Made by a program: the position numbers and the translations under genes. Shown piece by piece: positions 11,940 to 46,014 of a DNA stretch of 64,000 nt. The DNA is from a virus. The notes under the pieces were generated by a model, which worked only from the letters and a program-made list of their open reading frames with translations, had not been told where the DNA came from and made no database searches. The stretch lies in the IMG/VR virus record IMGVR_UViG_3300031758_000042, positions 1-64,000 of that record, one strand, 5' to 3'. How positions within the stretch are numbered: position 1 is the stretch's first letter; every line of letters begins with the position of its first letter.

Positions 11940-12205
11940 TGCCATTTTATTTGAAGAAGCCTATTCCCATTGAAGCTAGACAAATAACACTAGAAAGTAT
12001 TGATGATCTTATTGAATGGTCTAATGCTTCAGTGTCGCGAAGACCTGATGGCACAGCATCCGGTATGATGGTATGGACTCTTGAAGGTACTATGACTGGA
12101 AAGATGGGTGACTATCTTTGCAAAGGAATTAGAGGTGAGTTTTATTTTTGTGATAGAGAAATATTTCAAGAGTCGTATGTTGAAGTAGAAGTATCGGAGC
12201 GATAA
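11936..12205 (+). CDS. Small phage protein (KGEFYPC-type family)
   Basis: The pattern YLKKPIPIEARQIT ... GDYLCKGIRGEFYFCDREIFQESYVEVE is that of a short protein found in many phages and prophages. Its role is not known. It overlaps both neighbours by 1-4 nt and so is co-translated with ThyX and the radical SAM gene. Confidence 0.7.
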   Translation: MMPFYLKKPIPIEARQITLESIDDLIEWSNASVSRRPDGTASGMMVWTLEGTMTGKMGDYLCKGIRGEFYFCDREIFQESYVEVEVSER

Positions 12206-13869
12206 TGCAAGAACAACTCTTGACAGCCATTGACTATAATGAAAAGTCTGGCTATAATATGATGATTGTATGGGATCTCGGTCGTAGATGCAACTACGAC
12301 TGTACCTATTGTACACTATACATGCATAATTCATGGTCAGCTCATGCAGAGATGGAAGAACTTAAGAAGACCATGAAGCATATTGACGAATACTATTCAA
12401 TCTATAAATCATTTCATAAGATTGATATGGCATGTACTATTAGCTTCACTGGTGGTGAGCCGACTGTTAATCCAAATTTCTTTAAGTTTGTAGAATGGAT
12501 TAGAGACACTTATCCTAAGAAGTATCGTCTTAGCATGACGACTAATGCTACTTGGCCAACAGATACTAGTGAGAAGATCCTTAAACTCTTCAACATGATT
12601 ACTGTTAGCTACCATACTGAAGCACACCCAACATTGAAAGAAAAAGTTGTAAAGAATATCCTTCATCTACAGGATATTGGTCAACGTTTTAAAGTAAATG
12701 TCATGATGCATGCCAATGATCAATACTTTAATGAGTGTGTTGATCTTATGGAGAATGTTCTTACACCACGTAAGATTAATTTTATTCCTAGAATTATTGG
12801 TGAAAGACTAGAAGAACAAAAGAAAGATGAAGTAGATCTTAAGAAGCAGAAAGTAATTACAAGAAGTAAAGTGCATGCCTATACACATGATCAGGCTGCA
12901 TACATTACAATGTACTGGAATAAGAAAAACTTAGAACTTACTGAACATGCTTTCTCTAATATCAAAGTTAGTGGTCTAAGTGTAGAAGATTCAGTGAATG
13001 GTTTCTTTGATAGACTAATTGGTTCTAAAGAAGTCGAAGTAGAATCTGTAGAAGAATTTTTGTCTAAAGAACCGGTTGAAGTACAAAAGCAAATTAAAAA
13101 GATTGAAATTAAACAACAGCAAGTTGCTGATATTTCAATGAAAGGTAAAAAGAAAGAAGAAGTTCCTGCAGTATTGATTGAACAGGGTGAACATTCAAAA
13201 AAAACATATACTCTTATCGATAATGTTAATAAACCTGCAAAGCAAAGTATCGAAGCAGCCAACTTTGATTTTCAAGAAAAACTTGATAAGATAAGAGAGT
13301 CACGCAAGAACTTTGAAGATCCACTCAACATTGTTAAATCCGTGGATACTCTAAAGAAATCTAAGTTTGAAGAAGGTAAAGTAGTCGGCCGTTCTATTGG
13401 TAGGATGTGTTGTGGTGGCAGAGACTTGTCTTGTCAAACAGTTCATTCTGAAAAAGACCAGTGGGATGAAATCAAGTTTGCTAAGAACACAAACTTTAAG
13501 GGCTGGAAGTGTATGATTAATTGGTTCTTCTTGCATATTGAGCAAGAGAAGGATATTGTCTTCCATCATCAGACATGTAGGACAAGCCTTAATAGTGTTG
13601 AGGAACCTATCGGTAAAGTTAGTGAGTTCTCAAAGATCATATCAAAATTAAAAGATCATCTTTATGGTAACATGGAGATCCCCTACATAACATGCCCACA
13701 TGACCTTTGTGGTTGTGGTATGTGTGTTCCAAAGGCAAAAGATGAAGAGACTGCTAAGATGCTTTTCCATAAGTACGTAAAATCTTCAGTTGAACCTATT
13801 ATGGAACCAGCATTAATAGGTGATCCTGAGCTACAGCAACATATGAAAGAGATGAGGGATTATAAATAA
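12205..13869 (+). CDS. Radical SAM protein with C-terminal Cys-rich domain
   Basis: A 554-residue radical SAM enzyme. The 4Fe-4S site is CNYDCTYC (C29, C33, C36), and SFTGGEPTVNP (G83-P86) is the SAM-binding GGE motif. A Lys/Glu-rich linker (about 270-380) leads to a C-terminal region with many Cys: GRMCCGGRDLSC, FHHQTC and TCPHDLCGCGMC. These probably hold auxiliary clusters, as in SPASM-type peptide-modifying enzymes. Substrate unknown; no small precursor peptide is obvious next to it. It is the first of three radical SAM genes in the window. Confidence 0.85.
   Translation: MQEQLLTAIDYNEKSGYNMMIVWDLGRRCNYDCTYCTLYMHNSWSAHAEMEELKKTMKHIDEYYSIYKSFHKIDMACTISFTGGEPTVNPNFFKFVEWIRDTYPKKYRLSMTTNATWPTDTSEKILKLFNMITVSYHTEAHPTLKEKVVKNILHLQDIGQRFKVNVMMHANDQYFNECVDLMENVLTPRKINFIPRIIGERLEEQKKDEVDLKKQKVITRSKVHAYTHDQAAYITMYWNKKNLELTEHAFSNIKVSGLSVEDSVNGFFDRLIGSKEVEVESVEEFLSKEPVEVQKQIKKIEIKQQQVADISMKGKKKEEVPAVLIEQGEHSKKTYTLIDNVNKPAKQSIEAANFDFQEKLDKIRESRKNFEDPLNIVKSVDTLKKSKFEEGKVVGRSIGRMCCGGRDLSCQTVHSEKDQWDEIKFAKNTNFKGWKCMINWFFLHIEQEKDIVFHHQTCRTSLNSVEEPIGKVSEFSKIISKLKDHLYGNMEIPYITCPHDLCGCGMCVPKAKDEETAKMLFHKYVKSSVEPIMEPALIGDPELQQHMKEMRDYK
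13861..13868 (+). promoter_or_regulatory. T4-type late promoter TATAAATA for the curli-type operon
   Basis: Exact octamer overlapping the stop of the radical SAM gene. The predicted start near 13874 gives a 16-nt leader holding an AACAGGAGTAA ribosome site before csgF. Confidence 0.7.
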
Positions 13870-13889: not shown

Positions 13890-14327
13890 ATGAAGAAGAT
13901 AGCATTACTAGTGTGCTTATTTTCTTCTGCTTCTTATGCAAGTGAAGTGAGCTTTGGGTTTAAAAACCCATCTTTTTCTGGCGTCGGCTATTCGTCTCAT
14001 GTCTTAACTATTGATAACCTTGAACAAACAAGGAAGCAGAAGATTATAGAAGACAAGAAGACGGATGCAGCTAAAGCTGCAGCTGATGCTAAGAACACAA
14101 ACTTAGCTAAATTCTTGAATAATCTAGAGAGTAGAATCTATGCAACGATATCACAAAATATCGCTGCTGAATTATTTAAAGAAGGCGGAGCATCTTCAGG
14201 ATCTTTTGATATCGGTGGAAATAACTTACAGTGGACGTCTGACGGTAGTACTATAACATTAAGAATTACAGATCCCGGTGGTAGTGTTACGCAAGTGGTA
14301 GTACCATACGGGAGCTTAGCATGGTAA
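13890..14327 (+). CDS. csgF: CsgF-like curli assembly protein
   Basis: Has a signal peptide (1-17, cleavage after SASYA) and then VSFGFKNPSFSG, the conserved CsgF N terminus that inserts into the CsgG pore in the curli system. A helical middle (EQTRKQKIIEDKK ... FLNNLESRIYATIS) is followed by a beta C-terminal part. Known CsgF is about 138 aa, and this is 145. First gene of the operon, overlapping csgG by 7 nt. Family assignment rests on the N-terminal motif, the length and the CsgG neighbour. Confidence 0.8.
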   Translation: MKKIALLVCLFSSASYASEVSFGFKNPSFSGVGYSSHVLTIDNLEQTRKQKIIEDKKTDAAKAAADAKNTNLAKFLNNLESRIYATISQNIAAELFKEGGASSGSFDIGGNNLQWTSDGSTITLRITDPGGSVTQVVVPYGSLAW

Positions 14328-15148
14328 GATATGCATTTTTAATGGTCTGTGCTTTGGCTTTGGCTGGATGTACAGGCAGTAAGATAACATCTAGTAAAGA
14401 TTTAGAGAATCAAGTAGATAAAGCAGAAATAATTACTGCTAAAAGATTCAATGAGCTCATAAATATACCAGCCGTAAATGGCGACCCTATACCAGTGGCA
14501 GTGTATAAATTCTCTGATATGAGTGGACAAAGAAAACCAACCAGCAATTATGCTAGTTTAAGTTCTGCTGTCACACAAGGTGGAGAAGTCATACTAATAA
14601 AAGCTTTACAGGATGCTTCAAAAGGTAAGTTCTTTAAACCTATCGAGAGAGTAAGTCTTGATAATCTTGTTAAAGAAAGACAACTTATTAGAAGTCAACG
14701 TGAAGTATATGAAAAAGAACAAGCCAAACCCTTAACACCACTTATAGTAGCTGGTATAATGATAGAGGGTGGTATAGTTGGTTATGATAGTAATATTGCA
14801 ACTGGTGGTATTGGTGCACGTTATCTTGGCCTTGGAGCACAGCAAGAATATCGTAAAGACGAAGTAACTATTATGTTGAGATTAATATCAATTAGCACAG
14901 GTGAGATATTAATTTCTAGCGGTGTGACAAAGACTATCTATAGCACTGGTGTAAGTGCTAATGTATTTAAGTTTGTTGATGCTGGAACAAGATCAGTAGA
15001 GTTAGAAGCAGGTACTTCTATAAATGAACCTACAACTTATGCTGTAAGGATAGCTATAGAAGCAGCAGTAGTTGACATGATAAAACAAGGTTCTCAAAAG
15101 AAGTTATGGAAGTATAAAGAGACAACTAAAAAGGAAAACAAAAAATGA
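14321..15148 (+). CDS. csgG: CsgG-like outer-membrane secretion channel
   Basis: A lipoprotein of 275 aa (lipobox LAGC with C17) with clear similarity to CsgG, the nonameric outer-membrane pore that exports curlin subunits. Recognisable segments in order: PVAVYKFSDMSGQRKP, AVTQGGEVILIKALQD, FKPIERVSLDNLVKERQLIRSQRE, PLTPLIVAGIMIEGGIVGYDSN, ATGGIGARYLGLGAQQEYRKDEV and STGEILISSGVTKTIYS. Length fits E. coli CsgG (277). It is followed at a 4-nt overlap by a curlin-like gene. CsgG homologues have been reported in marine phages and viromes; their role in infection is not settled. Confidence 0.93.
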   Translation: MVRYAFLMVCALALAGCTGSKITSSKDLENQVDKAEIITAKRFNELINIPAVNGDPIPVAVYKFSDMSGQRKPTSNYASLSSAVTQGGEVILIKALQDASKGKFFKPIERVSLDNLVKERQLIRSQREVYEKEQAKPLTPLIVAGIMIEGGIVGYDSNIATGGIGARYLGLGAQQEYRKDEVTIMLRLISISTGEILISSGVTKTIYSTGVSANVFKFVDAGTRSVELEAGTSINEPTTYAVRIAIEAAVVDMIKQGSQKKLWKYKETTKKENKK

Positions 15149-15828
15149 AAACAATCACAAGAATGATGATGTTTATATCATTCTTGGTCATGTCAGGTTA
15201 TGTAAATGCGGCAAACTTAATTTATATGGATCAGATCGGCGATGGTTCTACTATAAACATCACACAGTCTGGTTCTGGAAACGCAATTGGAACACCTAGT
15301 GTTAAATCAACATTTAATGGTGATAATAACACTGTAAATATTGAGCAGATTGGCAATAATAACGTAACGAATATGGCGGTTATGGGAGATGGTGCGACTA
15401 TATCATCTGTCATTACTGGCAGTTCTAATATACTAAATTTAGAGTGTGGTGCTAATGGAGGTTCTTGTGGACCATCAACAATCACTAATTCTGTAACTGG
15501 TGATGGTAACTCACTAACACAGAGTACAAACTCTCTAACTAATACTACAGTAAACATACAATCAGATAATAACCAAGTTAATATGACAAATACTTCATCT
15601 GCTGTAGCTGGTACAAAGAATCTTGTTGATATCGTTGGTGGTAGTGGTAATATAGTTGATGTTGTTCAGGCAGGAACTGCAGGAACTACTGGTCATGAAG
15701 TAGATTTATCAATAAATGGTGCATTAAACACCGTTGACTTTAGACAGGGTGGAGCAATTGATTCAAAGATCGTTACAACTATTACCGGTTCTAGCAACGC
15801 TGTTACTATTAAGTCCAACCACAACTAA
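15145..15828 (+). CDS. Curlin-repeat protein (CsgA/CsgB-like)
   Basis: Signal peptide 1-22 (ending YVNA) followed by about 200 residues rich in Asn, Ser, Gly, Thr, Gln and Ile, with curlin-style repeats: MDQIGDGSTINITQSGSGN, NNTVNIEQIGNNN, NTVDFRQGG and others with the N-x-(V/I)-x-(I/V)-x-Q-x-G-x-x-N spacing. Two Cys (LECGANGGSCG) sit in mid-chain, unusual for curlin. It is probably the amyloid-type substrate of the CsgG/CsgF pore encoded upstream. Its last 71 nt also encode the signal peptide of the FecR gene in another frame. Confidence 0.8.
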   Translation: MKTITRMMMFISFLVMSGYVNAANLIYMDQIGDGSTINITQSGSGNAIGTPSVKSTFNGDNNTVNIEQIGNNNVTNMAVMGDGATISSVITGSSNILNLECGANGGSCGPSTITNSVTGDGNSLTQSTNSLTNTTVNIQSDNNQVNMTNTSSAVAGTKNLVDIVGGSGNIVDVVQAGTAGTTGHEVDLSINGALNTVDFRQGGAIDSKIVTTITGSSNAVTIKSNHN

Positions 15829-16867
15829 TGCTTCAGTTGGACAAGTAACAGAACAAACTGGACCTACAGAGATAAAGAGGCAATCTGAGGTTATTCCTAG
15901 TGCATTGCAATTTGGTGTCGAGATGCAAGATGTCATCACAACAGCAAATTCAAAAGCTGGAATAACCTTTAAAGATGATACTAGAGTCCAGATAACTGAA
16001 CATAGTAAATTAGTCATTGATAACTTCGTTTATGATGGTGATAAGAAAACAGGAAAACTTGGTATCAAGATGGCGCTTGGTACTATTAAATATGCATCAG
16101 GTCAAATAGCTAAGAATGATCCACAACAAGTTGTAGTTACTACACCAACTGCTACTATAGGTGTCAGAGGTACAGACTTTTCAAGTACGGTCGATGAACT
16201 TGGAAGATCACAAATAATACTATTACCATCTTGTCCCGAAGGTTGGAAAGATATACAAAGAGATTGTGTTATCGGTAAGATCTTAGTATCATCTGTCATG
16301 GGTACAGTATTACTAACAAAACCATTTGAAACTACGACTGTTGATACTAGCTTTTCAAGGCCGACAGCTTCTGCAATATTAAACTTAGATTTGAATCAAG
16401 TTAATAATTTAATCATTGTAACACCACCTAAAATTGTAGAACAAACTGAAAGAACTATTGAAAGAAGAGGATATAATTTCTTAGATGAAGACTTTCTTAA
16501 GAAAGATTATTTAAAATATACTGAATTAGATAAAGATTTTTTAAAAGAGTTTAATAAGCTAAACAGAGATTTTCTTAGTGCTGATTATCTTTATAACTTC
16601 TTAGATGTGGCTTCGTCACAATTATTATCAGATGAACTCAGTGAGTTTAATTCTCTACTGCCTAAATTTAATCCAACCAGTGGTCTTAAGTTTTTTGTTG
16701 AAAATGAAATGCTAACATTGTATAGAGAAACAGTAAATAGCTACGCCGAGCTAACTATGTCTCAATATAAAGCTGGTACTCTTAAGATAACTCAAGAGGG
16801 TTTAGAGGTTAAACAAATAATAAACAATACTGGAACAACCATAATTACCATAAAGCAATCAGAATGA
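15758..16867 (+). CDS. FecR-domain secreted protein
   Basis: The frame is open from a TTG at 15734. The TTG at 15758 gives a textbook signal peptide (IQRSLQLLPVLATLLLL, cleavage after TNA) behind an AGGGTGGAG ribosome site, so I chose it. The start overlaps the curlin gene by 71 nt in a different frame. After cleavage, SVGQVTEQTGPTEIKR and ANSKAGITFKDDTRVQITEHSKLVIDNF, then TPTATIGVRGTDF, are the FecR domain (about 30-150). The C-terminal half is helical with repeated DFL motifs (DEDFLKKDYLK, DKDFLKEFNKLNRDFL). FecR-domain proteins sit next to CHASE2 cyclases in many bacteria, as here. Confidence 0.8.
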   Translation: MIQRSLQLLPVLATLLLLSPTTTNASVGQVTEQTGPTEIKRQSEVIPSALQFGVEMQDVITTANSKAGITFKDDTRVQITEHSKLVIDNFVYDGDKKTGKLGIKMALGTIKYASGQIAKNDPQQVVVTTPTATIGVRGTDFSSTVDELGRSQIILLPSCPEGWKDIQRDCVIGKILVSSVMGTVLLTKPFETTTVDTSFSRPTASAILNLDLNQVNNLIIVTPPKIVEQTERTIERRGYNFLDEDFLKKDYLKYTELDKDFLKEFNKLNRDFLSADYLYNFLDVASSQLLSDELSEFNSLLPKFNPTSGLKFFVENEMLTLYRETVNSYAELTMSQYKAGTLKITQEGLEVKQIINNTGTTIITIKQSE

Positions 16868-17145
16868 AAACACTATTAGCACTTCTATTCATGACATCAA
16901 CTGCATTTTCACAGACACTACCATCACCTGTTATGAATACTGCTACAGTAAACTTAACAGGGAACTTTAATAATGTCATTATTAATCAATCTGGTATTGG
17001 CTTTCACACTGCTATTATTAATAGTACTGGTGATAACGTCCCCATCAATATCACACAATCCGGCAATACCAATAAGTCTATATCGCTTGATATTCATTGT
17101 ACTAGTAATTGCGCAACTAATCCTTATATTATCAATCAATATTGA
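16864..17145 (+). CDS. Short curlin-repeat protein
   Basis: A 93-residue secreted protein (signal peptide 1-16, TSTAFS) with about two curlin-like repeats: TVNLTGNFNNVIINQSGIG and NVPINITQSGNTN. A Cys pair (HCTSNC) lies near the C terminus, which ends YIINQY. It could act as a nucleator or minor subunit, as CsgB does, but that is inferred from size and context. It overlaps both the FecR gene and the cyclase gene by 4 nt. Confidence 0.7.
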   Translation: MKTLLALLFMTSTAFSQTLPSPVMNTATVNLTGNFNNVIINQSGIGFHTAIINSTGDNVPINITQSGNTNKSISLDIHCTSNCATNPYIINQY

Positions 17146-19205
17146 ACATGGAAATATTAGGAAAGCTTTTAACCAGCGTTTGGGCAGTTGTTATCTCAGC
17201 GATAATGCTATTGGTCGTATATGTGTACAACCCTAGTCCAGTACAGGTACTTCAACTAAAGACTTTTGATTATCTAATAAATTCTATCGAAGAGAAAAAA
17301 TCAGAAGAATTAGTAATAGTTGATTTTGGTGAGAAGTCAGTAAAACAATTTGGCCAGTGGCCGTTTGATAGAAGAGATATAGCTAAGACTGTTAATAAAT
17401 TAAAAGAGAACGGCGCAGCACTTATAGTTATGCCTATACTTTTCTCAGAAAAAGATAGAGCTGGAGGCGACAATGAACTTACAAAATCTCTGGATGGTGT
17501 CGTCATCGCTCAGACACCTACTACTCAAGATATACCGCCAGACGCTGTACGTCGTGGGTTTGCTGCTATCGGGCCTGTTAACCCTACTGAGTATGTCTTT
17601 CGTTGGAGGGGCGGCCTACGTCCTTTACGTGAGCATGCCGAAGTGGCCGGAGGTGTTGGAGTGGTCGCCACCATTGGTGAGGTGGACGGTGTGGTTCGTC
17701 GTATCCCTCTACTTGTCAATATTGCTGGGAGTCTTTATCCTTCTATTCCTTTGGAAACGATTCGAGTGGCTGCTGGAGATCCTAGCTATCAAATTAAAAC
17801 AAGTGAGATTGGACCAGAATTCGTCCGTGTACCTGCATTCGCGCCGATACAGACTGATGAAAGAGGAAGAATCTGGACGACATGGAACACAAAGTTCGAA
17901 AGAATAGAAGCTACCGAGATCGATAAGCGTGTCGATGGAAAGATAGTGATATTAGGCATTTCAATTGAGGGTGTCGGTGGTATAATAGCTACACCAGTAG
18001 GTGAGAAGTGGGCGCATGATGTACAGGCAAGTGCTCTGCAAACTATCATTGACGGTTCTTCGATATCGCGTCCAGGATATAGTAACTTAATAGAAAAACT
18101 AATACTGATATCAGTATTATTATCGCTACTTTTTCTAGTGCCGAGAACATCTGTTAAGTGGACCGTTCCTGTTTATATAGTGATCGTATCTTCTTGTGTT
18201 GCTTTTTCTGTCTATATGTTTAAAGAGCATTCACAGTTATGGGATACAAGTTATTTACTTTTTGCTTCTACGATGACTTTTGGTCATCTTGTATTCAATA
18301 ATTTTGCAAGAGAGTTTAGACTAAAACAACAAATCAAGAAACAGTTTGGAACTTATCTATCTCCAGCTCTGGTAGAGAAGCTTCAAAAGAACCCGGAGTT
18401 ACTACAACTTGGTGGAGATACTCGAGAATTATCAATCATGTTTACTGATGTTCGTGGCTTTACTACTATTAGTGAGCATTACGGAAGCGACGTTCAGGGT
18501 TTAACTAAAATCATGAACCGTTATATGACGGCCATGACTGCTAAGATACTTGAGAATAATGGAACACTAGACAAATATATTGGCGATGCACAGATGGCAT
18601 TTTGGAATGCACCACTCGATGATGCAGATCATGCCAAACACGCTGTTAAGACAGCACTGGAGATGTTAGATGATTTGGCCAGATTCAACGACGAAATCTC
18701 TGTTGAAGGCGTACCACCTTTCGGCATGGGGCTCGGTATTAATACTGGCTCCGTTGTTGTTGGTAACATGGGCAGTAGTCAGCGTTTTGATTATACATGC
18801 CTTGGTGACTCAGTAAACCTTGCTTCAAGATTAGAGGGTCAATCAAAACCATATCATGTTAAACTTGTAATTGGTCAGAGAACATATGAACTAGTAAAAG
18901 ATGAATATCTATGCTTAGAACTTGATTGTTTAGCAGTTAAAGGCAAATCACAGGGTGTCAATATATACACTATTGTACCAAAGACTGGAATCAATAGAGC
19001 TTATTCAAAAACACATGCTGACTTTGTTAAATTTTATAGAGAGCAGAACTGGGTTTCATTGGAAAATTATTATAAGACTCTTAGATCTGCGTTTAACGGA
19101 GAAATGACTGAGTATTATGATATGATGATGGAAAGAGTAGAGGAATTTAAGAAAAATCCTCTACCCTCTGATTGGGATGGTGTTTATCGTGCAACTTCTA
19201 AGTAA
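17142..19205 (+). CDS. CHASE2-domain class III adenylate/guanylate cyclase
   Basis: A 687-residue membrane protein. The first membrane helix is at 11-29. A periplasmic CHASE2 sensor (about 35-315) has the typical VDFGEKSVKQFGQWPFDRRDIA and DGVVRRIPLLVNIAGSLYPSIPLE. Three membrane helices follow (about 318-333, 341-358, 368-386), then a cytoplasmic class III cyclase (about 425-615). Catalytic residues look intact: metal Asp436 (FTDVRGF) and Asp482 (DKYIGDAQMAFW), Lys478 in the adenine-selecting position, then FDYTCLGDSVNLASRLEG with Asn559 and Arg563. It should make cAMP (Lys478 favours ATP) in response to a periplasmic signal. It ends the curli-type operon. Confidence 0.93.
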   Translation: MNMEILGKLLTSVWAVVISAIMLLVVYVYNPSPVQVLQLKTFDYLINSIEEKKSEELVIVDFGEKSVKQFGQWPFDRRDIAKTVNKLKENGAALIVMPILFSEKDRAGGDNELTKSLDGVVIAQTPTTQDIPPDAVRRGFAAIGPVNPTEYVFRWRGGLRPLREHAEVAGGVGVVATIGEVDGVVRRIPLLVNIAGSLYPSIPLETIRVAAGDPSYQIKTSEIGPEFVRVPAFAPIQTDERGRIWTTWNTKFERIEATEIDKRVDGKIVILGISIEGVGGIIATPVGEKWAHDVQASALQTIIDGSSISRPGYSNLIEKLILISVLLSLLFLVPRTSVKWTVPVYIVIVSSCVAFSVYMFKEHSQLWDTSYLLFASTMTFGHLVFNNFAREFRLKQQIKKQFGTYLSPALVEKLQKNPELLQLGGDTRELSIMFTDVRGFTTISEHYGSDVQGLTKIMNRYMTAMTAKILENNGTLDKYIGDAQMAFWNAPLDDADHAKHAVKTALEMLDDLARFNDEISVEGVPPFGMGLGINTGSVVVGNMGSSQRFDYTCLGDSVNLASRLEGQSKPYHVKLVIGQRTYELVKDEYLCLELDCLAVKGKSQGVNIYTIVPKTGINRAYSKTHADFVKFYREQNWVSLENYYKTLRSAFNGEMTEYYDMMMERVEEFKKNPLPSDWDGVYRATSK

Positions 19206-19206
19206 T

Positions 19207-19560
19207 TTACTTTACTTTTGTGGGTTTTGTGTTTGGATCACTTTCGGGCTCTTTTTGTGGTATAGATTTGGACCCGATTTGTTCCTCAACAATAAACTCA
19301 TGAGCTTGCTTTGTTAGTTCATCATGGTCCATCTTACGAAGTTGTAAGACTATATTAACTTTCTGATTCAAGCGAATAAGGTCATTATCAAGCATGCGAA
19401 TACGATCAATCAAAGCAATCAAAACTTTATTAGCTTCTGATAACACAGGTTTAACTTCCTGCGTTGCCCATGTCCATACATAGAATATCATATAACCCAT
19501 ACCTGCAGCTGCAACGATAGGGAAACCATACTTTGAGATTAATTGAGCAATATCACCCAT
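19207..19560 (-). CDS. Holin-like membrane/coiled-coil protein, paralogue 1
   Basis: A 117-residue protein with one N-terminal membrane helix (YGFPIVAAAGMGYMIFYVWTW, about 11-31), then a coiled coil (ANKVLIALIDRIRMLDNDLIRLNQKVN) and a charged tail. Its N-terminal 75 residues resemble the protein at 20099-20380 (GFPI-AAA-MGY-IF). Such short one-helix proteins in phages are often holin- or antiholin-like; that is inference. Its ATG follows the stop of the upstream NUMOD3 gene by 3 nt. Confidence 0.65.
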   Translation of the reverse strand: MGDIAQLISKYGFPIVAAAGMGYMIFYVWTWATQEVKPVLSEANKVLIALIDRIRMLDNDLIRLNQKVNIVLQLRKMDHDELTKQAHEFIVEEQIGSKSIPQKEPESDPNTKPTKVK

Positions 19561-20098: not shown

Positions 20099-20380
20099 TT
20101 AATCGCGTCTAGCATCGTTTTTGCCGTCCGCACGGGCGATACGGTCAATGTCAGGTTTAACACCCATGGCGTTGGAGACGAGAGTGTCGATTCTTATGAC
20201 GTCGTGGTTCATCGTCTTAACTCTGTTATCCAAAGCAGTAATGATTCCACTGAGACCTTGCACGCTGCTCATGACACCGGCGAGGATAAATTTAATAGTT
20301 AGAAAAATAAAGTATCCCATAGCGCAGGCGGCAGCAATTGGAAAGCCGACGTCTGCAATTAATTTAAACCATGTATCCAT
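20099..20380 (-). CDS. Holin-like membrane protein, paralogue 2
   Basis: A 93-residue protein with a membrane helix at about 11-35 (DVGFPIAAACAMGYFIFLTIKF), then a short helical region (ITALDNRVKTMNHDVIRIDTLV) and a charged tail. Same order and similar sequence as the protein at 19207-19560. A GGAGGAAAATC ribosome site and a late promoter lie upstream. The two paralogues flank the NUMOD3 gene, as if that gene had inserted between tandem copies. Confidence 0.65.
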   Translation of the reverse strand: MDTWFKLIADVGFPIAAACAMGYFIFLTIKFILAGVMSSVQGLSGIITALDNRVKTMNHDVIRIDTLVSNAMGVKPDIDRIARADGKNDARRD

Positions 20381-26202: not shown

Positions 26203-26901
26203 ATGCAACCATCTATTTCAGAAGTCAGAAGTCAACTCATCTATGATGAGGGTCTACGTAACTTCATGCTTAGTGTCTATAACTATATGACGTTTGCTCT
26301 TGCTGTCAGTGGTCTTGTATCGCTTGGTATTAGCATGAGTCCAGATCTTCTTAAGTTGATTTGGGGTACAAGCTTTAAGTGGATTGCTATCTTCTCACCA
26401 CTTTTAATGAGTCTTGCTTTTGCTTTCATGGTCCAGAACATGAGTGCTTATACTGCTCGTGTCTTCTTGGTAGCATTCGCTGCCGTCATGGGTCTTAGCA
26501 TGAGTTCAATCTTCTTGATCTTTAAGCTTGGAAGTATTGCTCAGGTATTCTTCATTACTGCTGCTACTTTTGGTGCTACGTCGTTGTATGGTTATACAAC
26601 CAAGCGAGATCTGACCGGCCTTGGTAGCTTCCTAATGATGGGCGTGATTGGTCTTGTTATTGCTGGTCTAATCAATGTATTCCTGCAGAGTTCAATGATG
26701 TCATTGATTATTAGTTGTATCTCTGTAATTGTATTTGTTGGTCTTACTGCTTATGATACACAGAACCTCAAGAATACATACGATGAACTTGATGAAAGTG
26801 AAAGAGATAAGGCAGGTGCTATCGGTGCTTTTAATCTCTACATTAACTTCATCAACATCTTCATGGCTCTCATGAATATCTTGGGTGAGAAGAAAGAATA
26901 A
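26203..26901 (+). CDS. Bax inhibitor-1/YbhL-family membrane protein
   Basis: A 232-residue protein with about seven membrane helices (first near 24-44) and the family signature near the C terminus: GLTAYDTQNLKNTYDEL, then GAIGAFNLYINFINIFMALMNILG. Bacterial members (YbhL/YccA type) are inner-membrane proteins linked to proton/calcium leak or FtsH control. It has an AAGGAG ribosome site. It is unusual cargo for a phage, probably acquired from a host, and may alter membrane physiology or delay lysis. Confidence 0.88.
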   Translation: MQPSISEVRSQLIYDEGLRNFMLSVYNYMTFALAVSGLVSLGISMSPDLLKLIWGTSFKWIAIFSPLLMSLAFAFMVQNMSAYTARVFLVAFAAVMGLSMSSIFLIFKLGSIAQVFFITAATFGATSLYGYTTKRDLTGLGSFLMMGVIGLVIAGLINVFLQSSMMSLIISCISVIVFVGLTAYDTQNLKNTYDELDESERDKAGAIGAFNLYINFINIFMALMNILGEKKE

Positions 26902-31401: not shown

Positions 31402-32853
31402 ATGTTTGATTATATATTATGGTTGCTGTTTGGTACAGCATATGGATTTTTAATTGGTTTGATACCAGTCGCCGGTGCTAGCACTGCGCTAATTACCATT
31501 TACGGCTTTTTAGATTTCTTTAGAGCAGATCCATACACACTAGTAGTTTTCACGACAGCTATAGTTGTAGCAAGCACCATAGGTGATAGCTTTGCAAGTA
31601 TTGTTCTCAATATACCCGGAGCATCCGGATCTGCAGCAACCATCGTTGATGGCTTTCCTTTGGCTAAAAAGGGTCAAGCGGCTCGTGCATTAAGTGCTGC
31701 TATTACTACATCAACTTTGAATGGTTTTATATTCGGAATCATCGCTCTTGTTTTTTTGCCGTTCTATTCTAAAGCAGTATTAGCTTTTGGTATTCCTGAA
31801 CTATTATGTTTTCTGATATTAGCTTTCACTTGCGTTACATTTATAACAAGTGATAAGTGGGTGAGAGGAATATTTGGTCTATGTCTTGGTATATTTCTTG
31901 GAATGGTTGGTCAACATCCAACTACTAATGCAGCTAGATGGACATTAGATTGGGAATACATAAAAGCTGGTATTCAAATCATGCCGGTTCTCGCAGGAGT
32001 CTTAGCATTTCCTGAACTAATTGAAGCATATAGAACAGGATATAATGCTACGACTACAAAGATAGTTGATGCAAAGAATCAAACTATACAAGGAATAAAA
32101 GATACTTTCATACATTGGAAAGATAGCATTCGTGGAGGTGCTATCGGTGCATTTATTGGTGTATTGCCTGGTGTTGGTGGTGCAGTCGCAGACTGGGTAG
32201 CGTATAGCCAGACTGTAGCAATAAATAAAAATGAAAAGATACCGTTTGGTGAAGGTAATATCAAGGGTGTTATTGGTTGTGAGGGTGCTAATAACTCTCA
32301 GAAAGCAACTGGATATATACCAACAGTTTTGTTTGGTATACCAGCAGCACCATTTGAAGCTATCATCTTAAGTTTGTTTATCTTAGTTGGTATTGAACTA
32401 GGAACACCAAACTTATTAAAAGATATGACTTTCTTTAAAGCTCTGAACTATAGTTATATGGCTTCATTAGTTTTAACATTTGCTGTATCTATGGTCATGA
32501 TTAAATATATCACTTATATATTTAAGATACCATTCTCTATATGGTTCTATGTTTTATCTGCGCTATTGGTGTGGAGCTGTGTGCAGTATACTGGTTATTG
32601 GGAAGACTATTTTATCTTAGCAGTCTTCATAGTTTTAGGTTTCTTATTAAAACACTTTAGTATAAGTAGAGCTGCATTTATTATTGGGTTTGTTTTATCA
32701 GATCAGATAGAAAAAATGTACTATCAATATACAACTTTATTTGATTGGTACACAGTCTTTACAAGACCAATATCATTGACTTTAATAATAGTATCTATTA
32801 TGCTAGCAATCTATGGAATATTCTTTAACAAGACAAGGATAACATATACATGA
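31402..32853 (+). CDS. tctA: TctA-family membrane subunit of a tricarboxylate-type transporter
   Basis: A 483-residue integral membrane protein with about 12 helices. Two inverted signature regions are present: FLIGLIPVAGASTALIT near the N terminus and GAFIGVLPGVGGAVADWVAYSQTVA near 250-275. NIPGASGSAATIVDGFPLAKKGQAARAL and GYIPTVLFGIPAAPFEAIIL are also typical. TctA is the sodium- or proton-driven permease of the TctABC system that takes up organic acids delivered by the TctC binding protein. TctC is encoded at 34450. No TctB was found between them. Host-derived auxiliary gene. Confidence 0.92.
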   Translation: MFDYILWLLFGTAYGFLIGLIPVAGASTALITIYGFLDFFRADPYTLVVFTTAIVVASTIGDSFASIVLNIPGASGSAATIVDGFPLAKKGQAARALSAAITTSTLNGFIFGIIALVFLPFYSKAVLAFGIPELLCFLILAFTCVTFITSDKWVRGIFGLCLGIFLGMVGQHPTTNAARWTLDWEYIKAGIQIMPVLAGVLAFPELIEAYRTGYNATTTKIVDAKNQTIQGIKDTFIHWKDSIRGGAIGAFIGVLPGVGGAVADWVAYSQTVAINKNEKIPFGEGNIKGVIGCEGANNSQKATGYIPTVLFGIPAAPFEAIILSLFILVGIELGTPNLLKDMTFFKALNYSYMASLVLTFAVSMVMIKYITYIFKIPFSIWFYVLSALLVWSCVQYTGYWEDYFILAVFIVLGFLLKHFSISRAAFIIGFVLSDQIEKMYYQYTTLFDWYTVFTRPISLTLIIVSIMLAIYGIFFNKTRITYT

Positions 32854-45220: not shown

Positions 45221-45651
45221 AGATCATCAATGAATGTAGCATGTTTACTCATGCACAACTAGAACTTATCGAAAAGAAATACAACGGTAAGTTTGTGTTT
45301 GAGAGTTGTCTTAAAAATAAGAAAGGCGACTGGTGTAATTTTCCTGTCTCTATCTTTTATACAGAAGAACCACATCCAGAAGGCTCGAACTATTTTGCTA
45401 TCTGGTTCGACGATATCGGTCATGTCATGATCTCTAATGGTATTAGTGCTACTGAACCATTCTATGGTATCATCGTAGATGATACTGCATATTACTCCCG
45501 TTATCGTCATGACTATAAAGACTACGGTGATTTCTTTGTAGATGGTGGACGTGACTACTCACGCTTCGGTGGATCGCGTTTTAAAGATATTAAAAGTTGT
45601 ACATTAAAAGTAGAAAAAGACAAATTAACTGTTTACAACATTAGACAGTAG
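45217..45651 (+). CDS. Hypothetical phage protein (144 aa)
   Basis: Overlaps the preceding gene by 4 nt (ATGA). A beta-rich, aromatic-rich protein (PVSIFYTEEPHPEGSNYFAIWFDDIGHVMIS, YYSRYRHDYKDYGDFFVDGGRDYSRFGG). No motif recognised. Last gene before the tmRNA locus. Confidence 0.65.
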   Translation: MKIINECSMFTHAQLELIEKKYNGKFVFESCLKNKKGDWCNFPVSIFYTEEPHPEGSNYFAIWFDDIGHVMISNGISATEPFYGIIVDDTAYYSRYRHDYKDYGDFFVDGGRDYSRFGGSRFKDIKSCTLKVEKDKLTVYNIRQ

Positions 45652-45654
45652 TGG

Positions 45655-45662
45655 TATAAATA
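45655..45662 (+). promoter_or_regulatory. T4-type late promoter TATAAATA for the tmRNA
   Basis: Exact octamer. With the T4 spacing, transcription would start at about 45668, which coincides with the likely 5' end of the tmRNA acceptor piece. Confidence 0.7.
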
Positions 45663-45667
45663 ACTAT

Positions 45668-45734
45668 GCTGAGGTCGTTGAGGCGTTCAGAATAAACGTT
45701 TCGGACGCGGGGGCAGTACCCGCCGCCTCCACCA
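45668..45734 (+). ncRNA. ssrA: tmRNA (permuted), acceptor piece
   Basis: Contains the conserved TTTCGGACGCGGG of tmRNA 3' halves, a T arm GCGGG/CCCGC (45707-45711, 45719-45723), acceptor strand CGCCTCC (45724-45730), then A and CCA (45732-45734). Acceptor pairing is with GGGGGCG at 45867, giving G3-U70, the alanine identity pair. The T loop is GGCAGTA rather than the usual TTC-containing loop. The 5' end is a guess from the late promoter. The acceptor piece precedes the coding piece, as in the circularly permuted two-piece tmRNAs of alphaproteobacteria. Confidence 0.85.
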
Positions 45735-45752
45735 TAAACACAGGATACTACA

Positions 45753-45854
45753 ATGATTTGGCTTGTTTGGAATTGGTTTACAAATGCACCATACTATGGT
45801 GATCTTGCTAGACATCGCAAGCACACTTCTTTGTATGAAGATCTTTGTATGTAA
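45753..45854 (+). CDS. Trp-rich mini-ORF inside the tmRNA intervening segment
   Basis: A 33-residue frame from ATG 45753 begins MIWLVWNWFTNAPYYGDLA and ends TAA 45854, within the 132-nt spacer between the two tmRNA pieces. AGGA lies seven bases upstream of the ATG. The similarity in style to the Trp-rich ORF at 46120 suggests a real short peptide, but it may also be chance. Confidence 0.4.
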   Translation: MIWLVWNWFTNAPYYGDLARHRKHTSLYEDLCM

Positions 45855-45866
45855 TGTGTTTATGTT

Positions 45867-46014
45867 GGGGGCGAAATAGGATCGACGTGCGTAGTAAAAG
45901 TACGAAGAGACCAAAAGCAACGTATAGATGCAAACGATAATGCACCTTTCGCTATGGCAGTAGCTGCCTAAGCATGAGCTCGGTGGGGAGCTTGGAAACA
46001 GAATCCCCACCACA
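45867..46014 (+). ncRNA. ssrA: tmRNA (permuted), coding piece
   Basis: Begins GGGGGCG (acceptor 5' strand) and GGATCGACG, matching tmRNA 5' ends. The tag frame starts at GCA 45930 and reads ANDNAPFAMAVAA then TAA (45969-45971); the VAA end is the ClpX-type degron seen in bacterial tags. A 3' pseudoknot-like stem GGTGGGG/CCCCACC (45982-45988, 46005-46011) follows. The RNA would rescue stalled ribosomes and tag proteins for proteolysis. The alphaproteobacterial-style tag and permutation point to the host group. Confidence 0.9.

What the first reader, a model, noticed from the sequence alone, without database searches (positions are those of the whole stretch)
13890..19205. Phage-borne curli-type secretion operon fused to a FecR/CHASE2-cyclase signalling pair
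Seen: CsgF-like, CsgG, two curlin-repeat proteins, a FecR protein and a CHASE2 class III cyclase, all overlapping or abutting and preceded by an exact late promoter. Known: CsgG/CsgF export curlin across the outer membrane; CsgG homologues occur in marine phages. CsgE, CsgD and CsgC were not found. Inference: late in infection the phage may build amyloid-like fibres or alter the cell surface while raising cAMP. A full operon with its own substrate genes and a cyclase is more than the lone CsgG usually noted.
Basis: partly seen in the sequence, partly recalled or inferred. Interest (0 to 1): 0.8.

Follow-up and report, generated by a model that had tools for sequence, protein, structure and literature searches.

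The report
Phage curli operon with signalling pair
A phage from an environmental sample carries a compact set of genes for exporting curli-like surface fibres together with a periplasmic sensor and a cyclic-nucleotide enzyme; the same gene set is already published in marine phages, but the sensor seems to end in a fibre-like tail and the signal has no obvious receiver.

Summary
The operon is real: 13890-19205 encodes CsgF, CsgG, a curlin-repeat protein, a FecR-domain protein, a short second curlin-like protein and a CHASE2-class III cyclase, tightly packed behind a T4-type late promoter motif. The genes are adjacent, not fused. The arrangement is already published in marine myo- and podophages (PMC9599517) and annotated in HTVC008M and Melnitz phages. 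Among the nearest viral relatives the cyclase follows CsgG in 28 of 29 loci with room, and CsgF-CsgG-curlin-FecR precedes the cyclase in 34 of 34.

Additions: (1) cyclase metal Asp, Lys and Arg residues are kept in 83 of 83 sequences; (2) 96 of 108 curli-linked phage FecR proteins end in a curlin-like IxIxQ strand, absent from 23 cellular FecR proteins of loci without curli; (3) a Caulobacteraceae contig carries the same genes followed by a PycTM effector gene, against the published statement that FecR and cyclase are not within bacterial curli operons; (4) a receiver was not found: cNMP_binding 0 of 13, PycTM 0 of 18 phage records. Fibres remain untested.

The parts
13861..13868 (+). T4-type late promoter motif TATAAATA (motif recalled)
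   Evidence: exact match 21 bases before csgF; 16 in window against 8.6 expected
13890..14327 (+). CsgF-like protein, 145 aa, with conserved FxNPxFxG N-terminal segment
   Evidence: PF10614 8.2e-18; P27 and F29 in 77 of 77, G31 in 76 of 77 aligned CsgF
14321..15148 (+). CsgG-like outer-membrane pore lipoprotein, 275 aa
   Evidence: PF03783 1.7e-51; E. coli CsgG chains 1.3e-47
15145..15828 (+). First curlin-repeat protein, 227 aa
   Evidence: CsgA model 2.2e-5, below its cut-off; family support; repeat-strand model pLDDT 86.1, pTM 0.80
15758..16867 (+). FecR-domain periplasmic protein, about 369 aa, with IxIxQ C-terminus; start uncertain
   Evidence: PF04773 5.9e-12; PupR signalling-domain fold Z 15.2; C-terminus
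16864..17145 (+). Second, short curlin-like protein, 93 aa
   Evidence: CsgB model 2.7e-4, below its cut-off; same position as longer curlins in HTVC008M and Melnitz
17148..19205 (+). CHASE2-class III nucleotide cyclase, 685 aa (687 aa from TTG 17142)
   Evidence: PF05226 1.8e-36, PF00211 1.0e-20; D436, D482, K478, R563 in 83 of 83 (numbered from TTG 17142)

Best explanation
A self-contained curli-type secretion module expressed late in infection. CsgG with CsgF forms an outer-membrane pore (homology). The two curlin-repeat proteins are its substrates and make a small surface amyloid or solenoid layer (inferred from repeats and model). The FecR protein sits in the periplasm (signal-peptide-like start by eye, signalling-domain fold predicted) and, through its curlin-like C-terminal end, binds curlin subunits awaiting export; it reports this to the periplasmic CHASE2 domain of the membrane cyclase, which sets a cyclic-nucleotide level, most likely cAMP (both steps inferred). 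So FecR-CHASE2 would be a secretion or fibre-state sensor, not an iron regulator. What reads the nucleotide is unknown.
For: Among nearest relatives, FecR in 29 of 29 and cyclase downstream in 28 of 29 distinct CsgG-seeded loci with at least 7 kb downstream; CsgF-CsgG-curlin-FecR in 34 of 34 distinct cyclase-seeded loci with at least 7 kb upstream. CsgF N-terminal segment conserved. Curlin family above shuffled control. FecR C-terminus: hydrophobic-x-hydrophobic-x-Q end in 96 of 108 phage FecR against a mean of 9.0 for shuffled ends; 66 of 75 second curlins, 0 of 106 CsgG, 0 of 100 cyclases; present in the Caulobacteraceae FecR and, by reading the printed ends, in none of 23 FecR from cellular loci without curli. 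I363 and Q367 at least 90% conserved. A second-curlin profile hits 37 of 72 FecR C-termini against 0 of 360 shuffled at E<=0.01. FecR beside CHASE2 in cells: 13 of 20 Caulobacterales FecR loci have a CHASE2 cyclase within 2 kb; Burkholderia pairs FecR with a CHASE2 kinase in a biofilm operon (PMC5192318 passages). Cyclase residues kept. S. meliloti CHASE2 cyclases are reported to respond through the outer-membrane barrel NsrA (PMC13001267 passages).
Against: No experiment. Curlin_rpt is not among the 25 of 27 Pfam families shown for 72 FecR proteins at E<=1, so at most 1 of 72 hits it. A first-curlin profile separates FecR ends only weakly from shuffles (9 of 72 against 4 of 360 at E<=0.01). 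The FecR C-terminal region had only weak structural matches (Z under 3), so it may be no solenoid. Sequences counted are related, not independent. From the cyclase side FecR was seen in only 3 of 20 cellular loci with this narrow profile. Catalytic Asn is Ser in 10 of 83 cyclases. No cNMP_binding domain in 13 phage records. No clumping with Melnitz (PMC9004378 passage).
Confidence: 0.45

Rival explanations
1. Lysis-timing or secretin-like pore: CsgG (with or without CsgF) is reused as a gated outer-membrane channel that helps time lysis; the curlins are accessory or relict. This is the proposal of PMC9004378.
For: Late promoter motif; no clumping and no CsgA/CsgB recognised in Melnitz by its authors (PMC9004378 passages); small membrane proteins of one family, one with a weak holin match, lie just after the operon.
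Against: Curlin genes sit in the operon here and in relatives, and the Melnitz record itself annotates two curlin-repeat proteins. CsgF's N-terminal segment is conserved. It does not explain FecR and CHASE2 cyclase.
Confidence: 0.15
2. Uptake pore: an ungated CsgG channel lets larger nutrients or cofactors into the infected cell, as suggested in PMC7029224 and PMC9599517.
For: No CsgE gate recognised (partial test; PMC9599517 passages); FecR families elsewhere regulate iron uptake (recalled).
Against: Does not explain conserved curlins or CsgF; the FecR protein lacks the cytoplasmic anti-sigma part.
Confidence: 0.1
3. Cyclic-nucleotide manipulation of the host: the cyclase is the selected function, altering host signalling or feeding or distracting a cyclic-nucleotide defence, with curli as its trigger.
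For: Catalytic residues kept in 83 of 83; PycTM effector gene beside the cyclase in the Caulobacteraceae relative and near a FecR-cyclase pair in L261; PADLOC PycC models match the cyclase domain.
Against: PycC matches are expected for any class III cyclase; PycTM is absent from 18 phage records and from 99 genomes of a SAR11-type family, where cNMP_binding is also rare (5 of 99). PycTM was found near the cyclase in 2 of 41 cellular loci examined.
Confidence: 0.2

Closest known systems
Pelagiphage T8SS region, Wittmers et al. 2022 (PMC9599517; passages read)
   Same: CsgF-CsgG-CsgA/B-FecR-CsgA/B-AC order in marine myo- and podophages, with CsgC, CsgD and CsgE not reported
   Different: This phage's baseplate proteins are nearest Caulobacter phage Cr30 and Sinorhizobium phages; short second curlin; a radical SAM gene, not a histidine kinase, lies before csgF. 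The abstract says FecR, HK and AC are not within bacterial T8SS operons; L163 is a counter-example for FecR and AC
Pelagibacter phage HTVC008M gp014-gp019 and Methylophilales phage Melnitz operons
   Same: Same six genes, order and strand; CsgG 43-47%, cyclase 41-44%, FecR 38-39% identical
   Different: Second curlin 338-441 aa there, 93 aa here; the Melnitz cyclase has Asp and Ser where this one has Thr552 and Asn559
Caulobacteraceae MAG contig CANGEH010000001.1 (L163)
   Same: csgF-csgG-curlin-curlin-FecR-CHASE2 cyclase on one strand
   Different: Lies among bacterial genes (S9 peptidase and TonB receptor by Pfam; glycosyltransferase-like genes by reading); both curlins precede FecR; PycTM gene after the cyclase. 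It nests inside the phage clade in three trees, so direction of transfer is open
Burkholderia BiofilmReg operon (PMC5192318; passages)
   Same: Periplasmic FecR protein next to a CHASE2 sensor, in an operon tied to biofilm
   Different: LysM-FecR protein with a CHASE2 histidine kinase and response regulator; no curli genes or cyclase in the passages seen

Membership tests
Curli / type VIII secretion system | CsgG pore subunit | tested here: met
   PF03783 1.7e-51; E. coli CsgG chains 1.3e-47; below the NCBIfam equivalog cut-off
Curli / type VIII secretion system | CsgF | tested here: met
   PF10614 8.2e-18; NCBIfam equivalog only 0.0055
Curli / type VIII secretion system | Curlin-repeat substrate | tested here: met
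   Met through the family: 40 of 75 relatives match Curlin_rpt at E<=0.001, 0 of 10 shuffled; the window copies alone stay below curated cut-offs
Curli / type VIII secretion system | CsgE, CsgC, CsgD | tested here: inconclusive
   Not among the 25 of 39 families shown for 40 window ORFs; rest of the genome not scanned
Curli / type VIII secretion system | Amyloid fibre on the cell surface | not testable with these tools
   needs expression and staining
FecR anti-sigma regulators | FecR domain / cell-surface signalling fold | tested here: met
   PF04773 5.9e-12; 72 of 72 relatives; PupR Z 15.2, rmsd 2.6, 135 residues
FecR anti-sigma regulators | Cytoplasmic anti-sigma domain and membrane helix before the FecR domain | tested here: not met
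   Only a signal-peptide-like stretch of about 25 residues precedes the first strand (judged by eye)
CHASE2 class III adenylate cyclases | CHASE2 domain plus cyclase domain with metal Asp pair, Lys, Asn, Arg | tested here: met
   (residue roles recalled)
CHASE2 class III adenylate cyclases | cAMP production | not testable with these tools
   needs an enzyme assay
Pycsar defence | Cyclase with a PycTM or other effector gene | tested here: not met
   PycTM in 0 of 18 phage records, some of them fragments; found beside the cyclase in the Caulobacteraceae relative

The most novel reading that the evidence does not exclude
FecR-CHASE2-cyclase is a curlin-secretion sensor: a FecR protein with a curlin-like tail monitors export of amyloid subunits and drives a cyclic-nucleotide signal. 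In some Caulobacterales this signal is wired to a Pycsar-type membrane effector, so that tampering with fibre or envelope arrests the cell, while phages carry and trade the curli-sensor-cyclase block without that effector, feeding a receiver not yet recognised.
Probability: 0.2. Interest if true: 0.8.

Novelty: new member of a known kind. Interest (0 to 1): 0.42.

Why it matters
It places a published marine-phage curli module in a phage whose baseplate resembles other alphaproteobacterial T4-superfamily phages and, through L150, in a record with a different set of head genes, so the block seems to travel between unlike phages. It offers a testable reason for the FecR and cyclase genes, gives a counter-example to the statement that they are not within bacterial curli operons, and exposes an open question: what reads the nucleotide.

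Tried and rejected
Misassembly: rejected. Composition artefact for the curlins: rejected. FecR as an iron-citrate anti-sigma factor: rejected, nothing but a signal-peptide-like stretch before the domain. Phage receiver for the nucleotide: PF00027 in 0 of 13 phage records, several possibly fragments. Phage PycTM: 0 of 18 phage records; the 19th record was the Caulobacteraceae genome, which has one. Host receiver: in 99 genomes of one family PF00027 5 (three of the five in frames of 870-1002 aa), PF00211 3 (two over cut-off), PycTM 0. That family was taken as SAR11-type because a recalled 16S probe matched two of its genomes and the genomes are small; the window phage's host is unknown, so this does not settle its own case. 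Plasmids: 14 records match part of the Caulobacteraceae FecR, none over 80% of it. Other alphaproteobacterial CsgF: 7 of 385 genomes at E<=0.001, 6 over cut-off; five were re-fetched at 20 kb and show no FecR or CHASE2 cyclase by these profiles; G196, below cut-off, was not re-fetched. From 20 of the best cellular CHASE2 cyclases, FecR was seen in 3 loci (L266, L267, L270) with the phage-built profile, several contigs being short. Donor question: L163 nests within the phage clade, so neither direction is shown. Foldseek found no significant PDB match for the curlin model; the second-look aligner lists generic beta-solenoids. Curlin_rpt in FecR: not found, at most 1 of 72. Papers holding both Pycsar and CHASE2: 0 in the open library.
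Full report
Observation. The window is part of a 78,875-base virus record. Six same-strand genes lie at 13890-19205, overlapping or a few bases apart. Pfam assigns CsgF, CsgG, FecR, CHASE2 and Guanylate_cyc above cut-off; the two curlin-like proteins are below cut-off in Pfam and match NCBIfam CsgA and CsgB models at 2.2e-5 and 2.7e-4, also below those models' cut-offs. PHROGs holds phage families for four of the six (35372, 20175, 37870, 35576), so this set was already in phage data. TATAAATA lies 21 bases before csgF; 16 copies in the window against 8.6 expected. The FecR start is uncertain (TTG 15758 preferred); the cyclase likeliest starts at ATG 17148.

Prior art. tblastn finds the cyclase and CsgG in HTVC008M (two records) and four Melnitz records; the annotated order is the same in the two that I opened. 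PMC7029224 (2020) reported CsgF, CsgG and unidentified companions; PMC9004378 (2022) proposed a lysis-timing pore; PMC9599517 (2022) named the curlins, FecR and adenylate cyclase in myo- and podophages (passages of each seen). The finding as given is therefore a further example of a published module. Searches listed no further primary phage paper; two reviews that they listed were not opened. The library holds open-licence papers only.

Conservation. Loci L002-L161 (160: the best 80 of 267 CsgG relatives, 78 further loci from the best 80 of 513 cyclase relatives, and two annotated phages) fall into 100 groups by shared 300-mers. Of 29 distinct CsgG-seeded loci with at least 7 kb downstream, 29 have FecR and 28 the cyclase downstream; in the 29th, L069, a cyclase match lies upstream instead. 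Of 34 distinct cyclase-seeded loci with at least 7 kb upstream, 34 have CsgF-CsgG-curlin-FecR. These are the nearest relatives, so the figures do not speak for all phage CsgG. The second curlin comes in short and long forms (70 to 495 aa, stop-to-stop frames).

Curlins. 40 of 75 first-curlin relatives match Curlin_rpt at E<=0.001; 0 of 10 shuffled at E<=0.1. The predicted structure is a confident repeat of strands, pLDDT 86.1, pTM 0.80, which the second-look aligner sets on generic beta-solenoids; Foldseek gave nothing significant.

FecR. Residues 55-219 match the signalling domain of PupR (Z 15.2, rmsd 2.6, 135 residues). A low-confidence linker leads to a C-terminal region of six predicted strands, pLDDT 82-91 in ten-residue blocks. 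The C-terminus follows hydrophobic-x-hydrophobic-x-Q in 96 of 108 distinct phage FecR frames against a mean of 9.0 for shuffled ends, in 66 of 75 second curlins and 42 of 103 first curlins, in 6 of 97 CsgF, 0 of 106 CsgG and 0 of 100 cyclases. By reading, the Caulobacteraceae FecR has it and 23 FecR from cellular loci without curli matches do not. A second-curlin profile finds 37 of 72 FecR C-termini at E<=0.01 against 0 of 360 shuffled; a first-curlin profile 9 of 72 against 4 of 360. Against: Pfam's repeat model hits at most 1 of 72, and structural matches of this region are weak.

Cyclase. Across 83 aligned sequences the two metal aspartates, the Lys and the Arg are invariant; the Thr552 position is T 62, D 11, S 10; Asn559 is N 73, S 10 (roles recalled; alignment to solved adenylate cyclases). 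This fits an active adenylate-type cyclase here, with doubt for the ten Ser variants, Melnitz among them.

CsgF. P27 and F29 are in 77 of 77 and G31 in 76 of 77 aligned CsgF, resembling the FRNPNFGG start of E. coli CsgF (E 0.44, weak by itself), the segment that enters CsgG (recalled). This argues against the idea in PMC9004378 that phage CsgF no longer pairs with CsgG.

Cellular counterpart. A pattern-limited scan of the species-genome collection gave seven relatives of the cyclase. One, L163, is a Caulobacteraceae MAG contig with csgF-csgG-curlin-curlin-FecR-CHASE2 cyclase, S9 peptidase and TonB receptor genes downstream and glycosyltransferase-like genes upstream by reading. A PycTM gene (PF18967 8.8e-25, over cut-off) starts 441 bases after the cyclase. 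Three MAGs labelled Flavobacteriaceae (two) and Pirellulales also carry genes of this type; I suspect binned phage contigs and did not test it. The abstract of PMC9599517 says that FecR, histidine kinase and cyclase are not within bacterial T8SS operons; L163 contradicts this for FecR and cyclase. But in FastTree trees L163 nests inside the phage clade for cyclase (support 1.0, with 13 phage leaves), CsgG (0.999, with 4) and FecR (1.0, with 6), so phage-to-cell transfer is possible. One of those leaves, L150, has terminase-, portal- and capsid-like genes directly after the operon (by reading) and its 84,655-base record shows no T4 gp23, while the record of another, L145, does.

FecR-CHASE2 in cells. 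39 of 299 genomes of that order matched the FecR profile; of 20 loci fetched, 13 have a CHASE2 cyclase within 2 kb. Starting from 20 of the best cellular cyclases, 3 loci showed FecR by this narrow profile. One FecR locus, L261, has PycTM about 1 kb from the cyclase. A FecR-CHASE2 kinase pair is part of a biofilm operon in Burkholderia, and S. meliloti CHASE2 cyclases are said to respond through the outer-membrane barrel NsrA.

Receiver. cNMP_binding: 0 of 13 phage records. PycTM: 0 of 18 phage records. In 99 genomes of a SAR11-type family: cNMP_binding 5, Guanylate_cyc 3, PycTM 0. The host of the window phage is unknown: two baseplate proteins are nearest Caulobacter phage Cr30 and Sinorhizobium phages, its ssDNA-binding protein nearest cyanophages.

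Verdict. A real, conserved and already published phage module; this is a further member in another phage. The new parts are the FecR tail, the cellular counterpart with a Pycsar-type effector gene beside it, and the missing receiver.

Noticed in passing
window 31402-32853 +: Full-length TctA, the large membrane subunit of a tripartite tricarboxylate transporter (PF01970 2.8e-88), in a phage; three of its same-strand neighbours and one gene before it gave no Pfam match at E<=0.001.
   Followed up: partly
window 26203-26901 +: BAX inhibitor-1 family membrane protein (PF01027 2.9e-55) between phage tRNA genes.
   Followed up: no
window 45628-46012 +: Alphaproteobacterial-type tmRNA gene (RF01849, 111 bits) followed by tRNA-Arg; a phage tmRNA is also reported for Melnitz.
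   Followed up: no
window 12205-13869 +: Radical SAM protein directly before the operon; its core matches prokaryotic viperin profiles in part (2.3e-13), probably only the shared radical SAM core.
   Followed up: partly
L163 12491-13084 + and L261 3361-3933 -: PycTM-type effector genes near CHASE2 cyclases of Caulobacterales-order genomes, so some CHASE2 cyclases may belong to Pycsar-like systems.
   Followed up: partly
L150 7504-20684: CsgG-curlin-FecR-cyclase genes directly followed by terminase-, portal- and capsid-like genes (by reading) in a record without T4 gp23.
   Followed up: partly
L162, L164, L165: Genes of the curli-FecR-cyclase set in MAGs labelled Flavobacteriaceae and Pirellulales; possibly phage contigs binned with bacteria.
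   Followed up: no
window 19207-19560 - and 20099-20380 -: Two small proteins of one family (phrog_18771), the first with a weak holin match (1.4e-4), just after the operon on the other strand.
   Followed up: no
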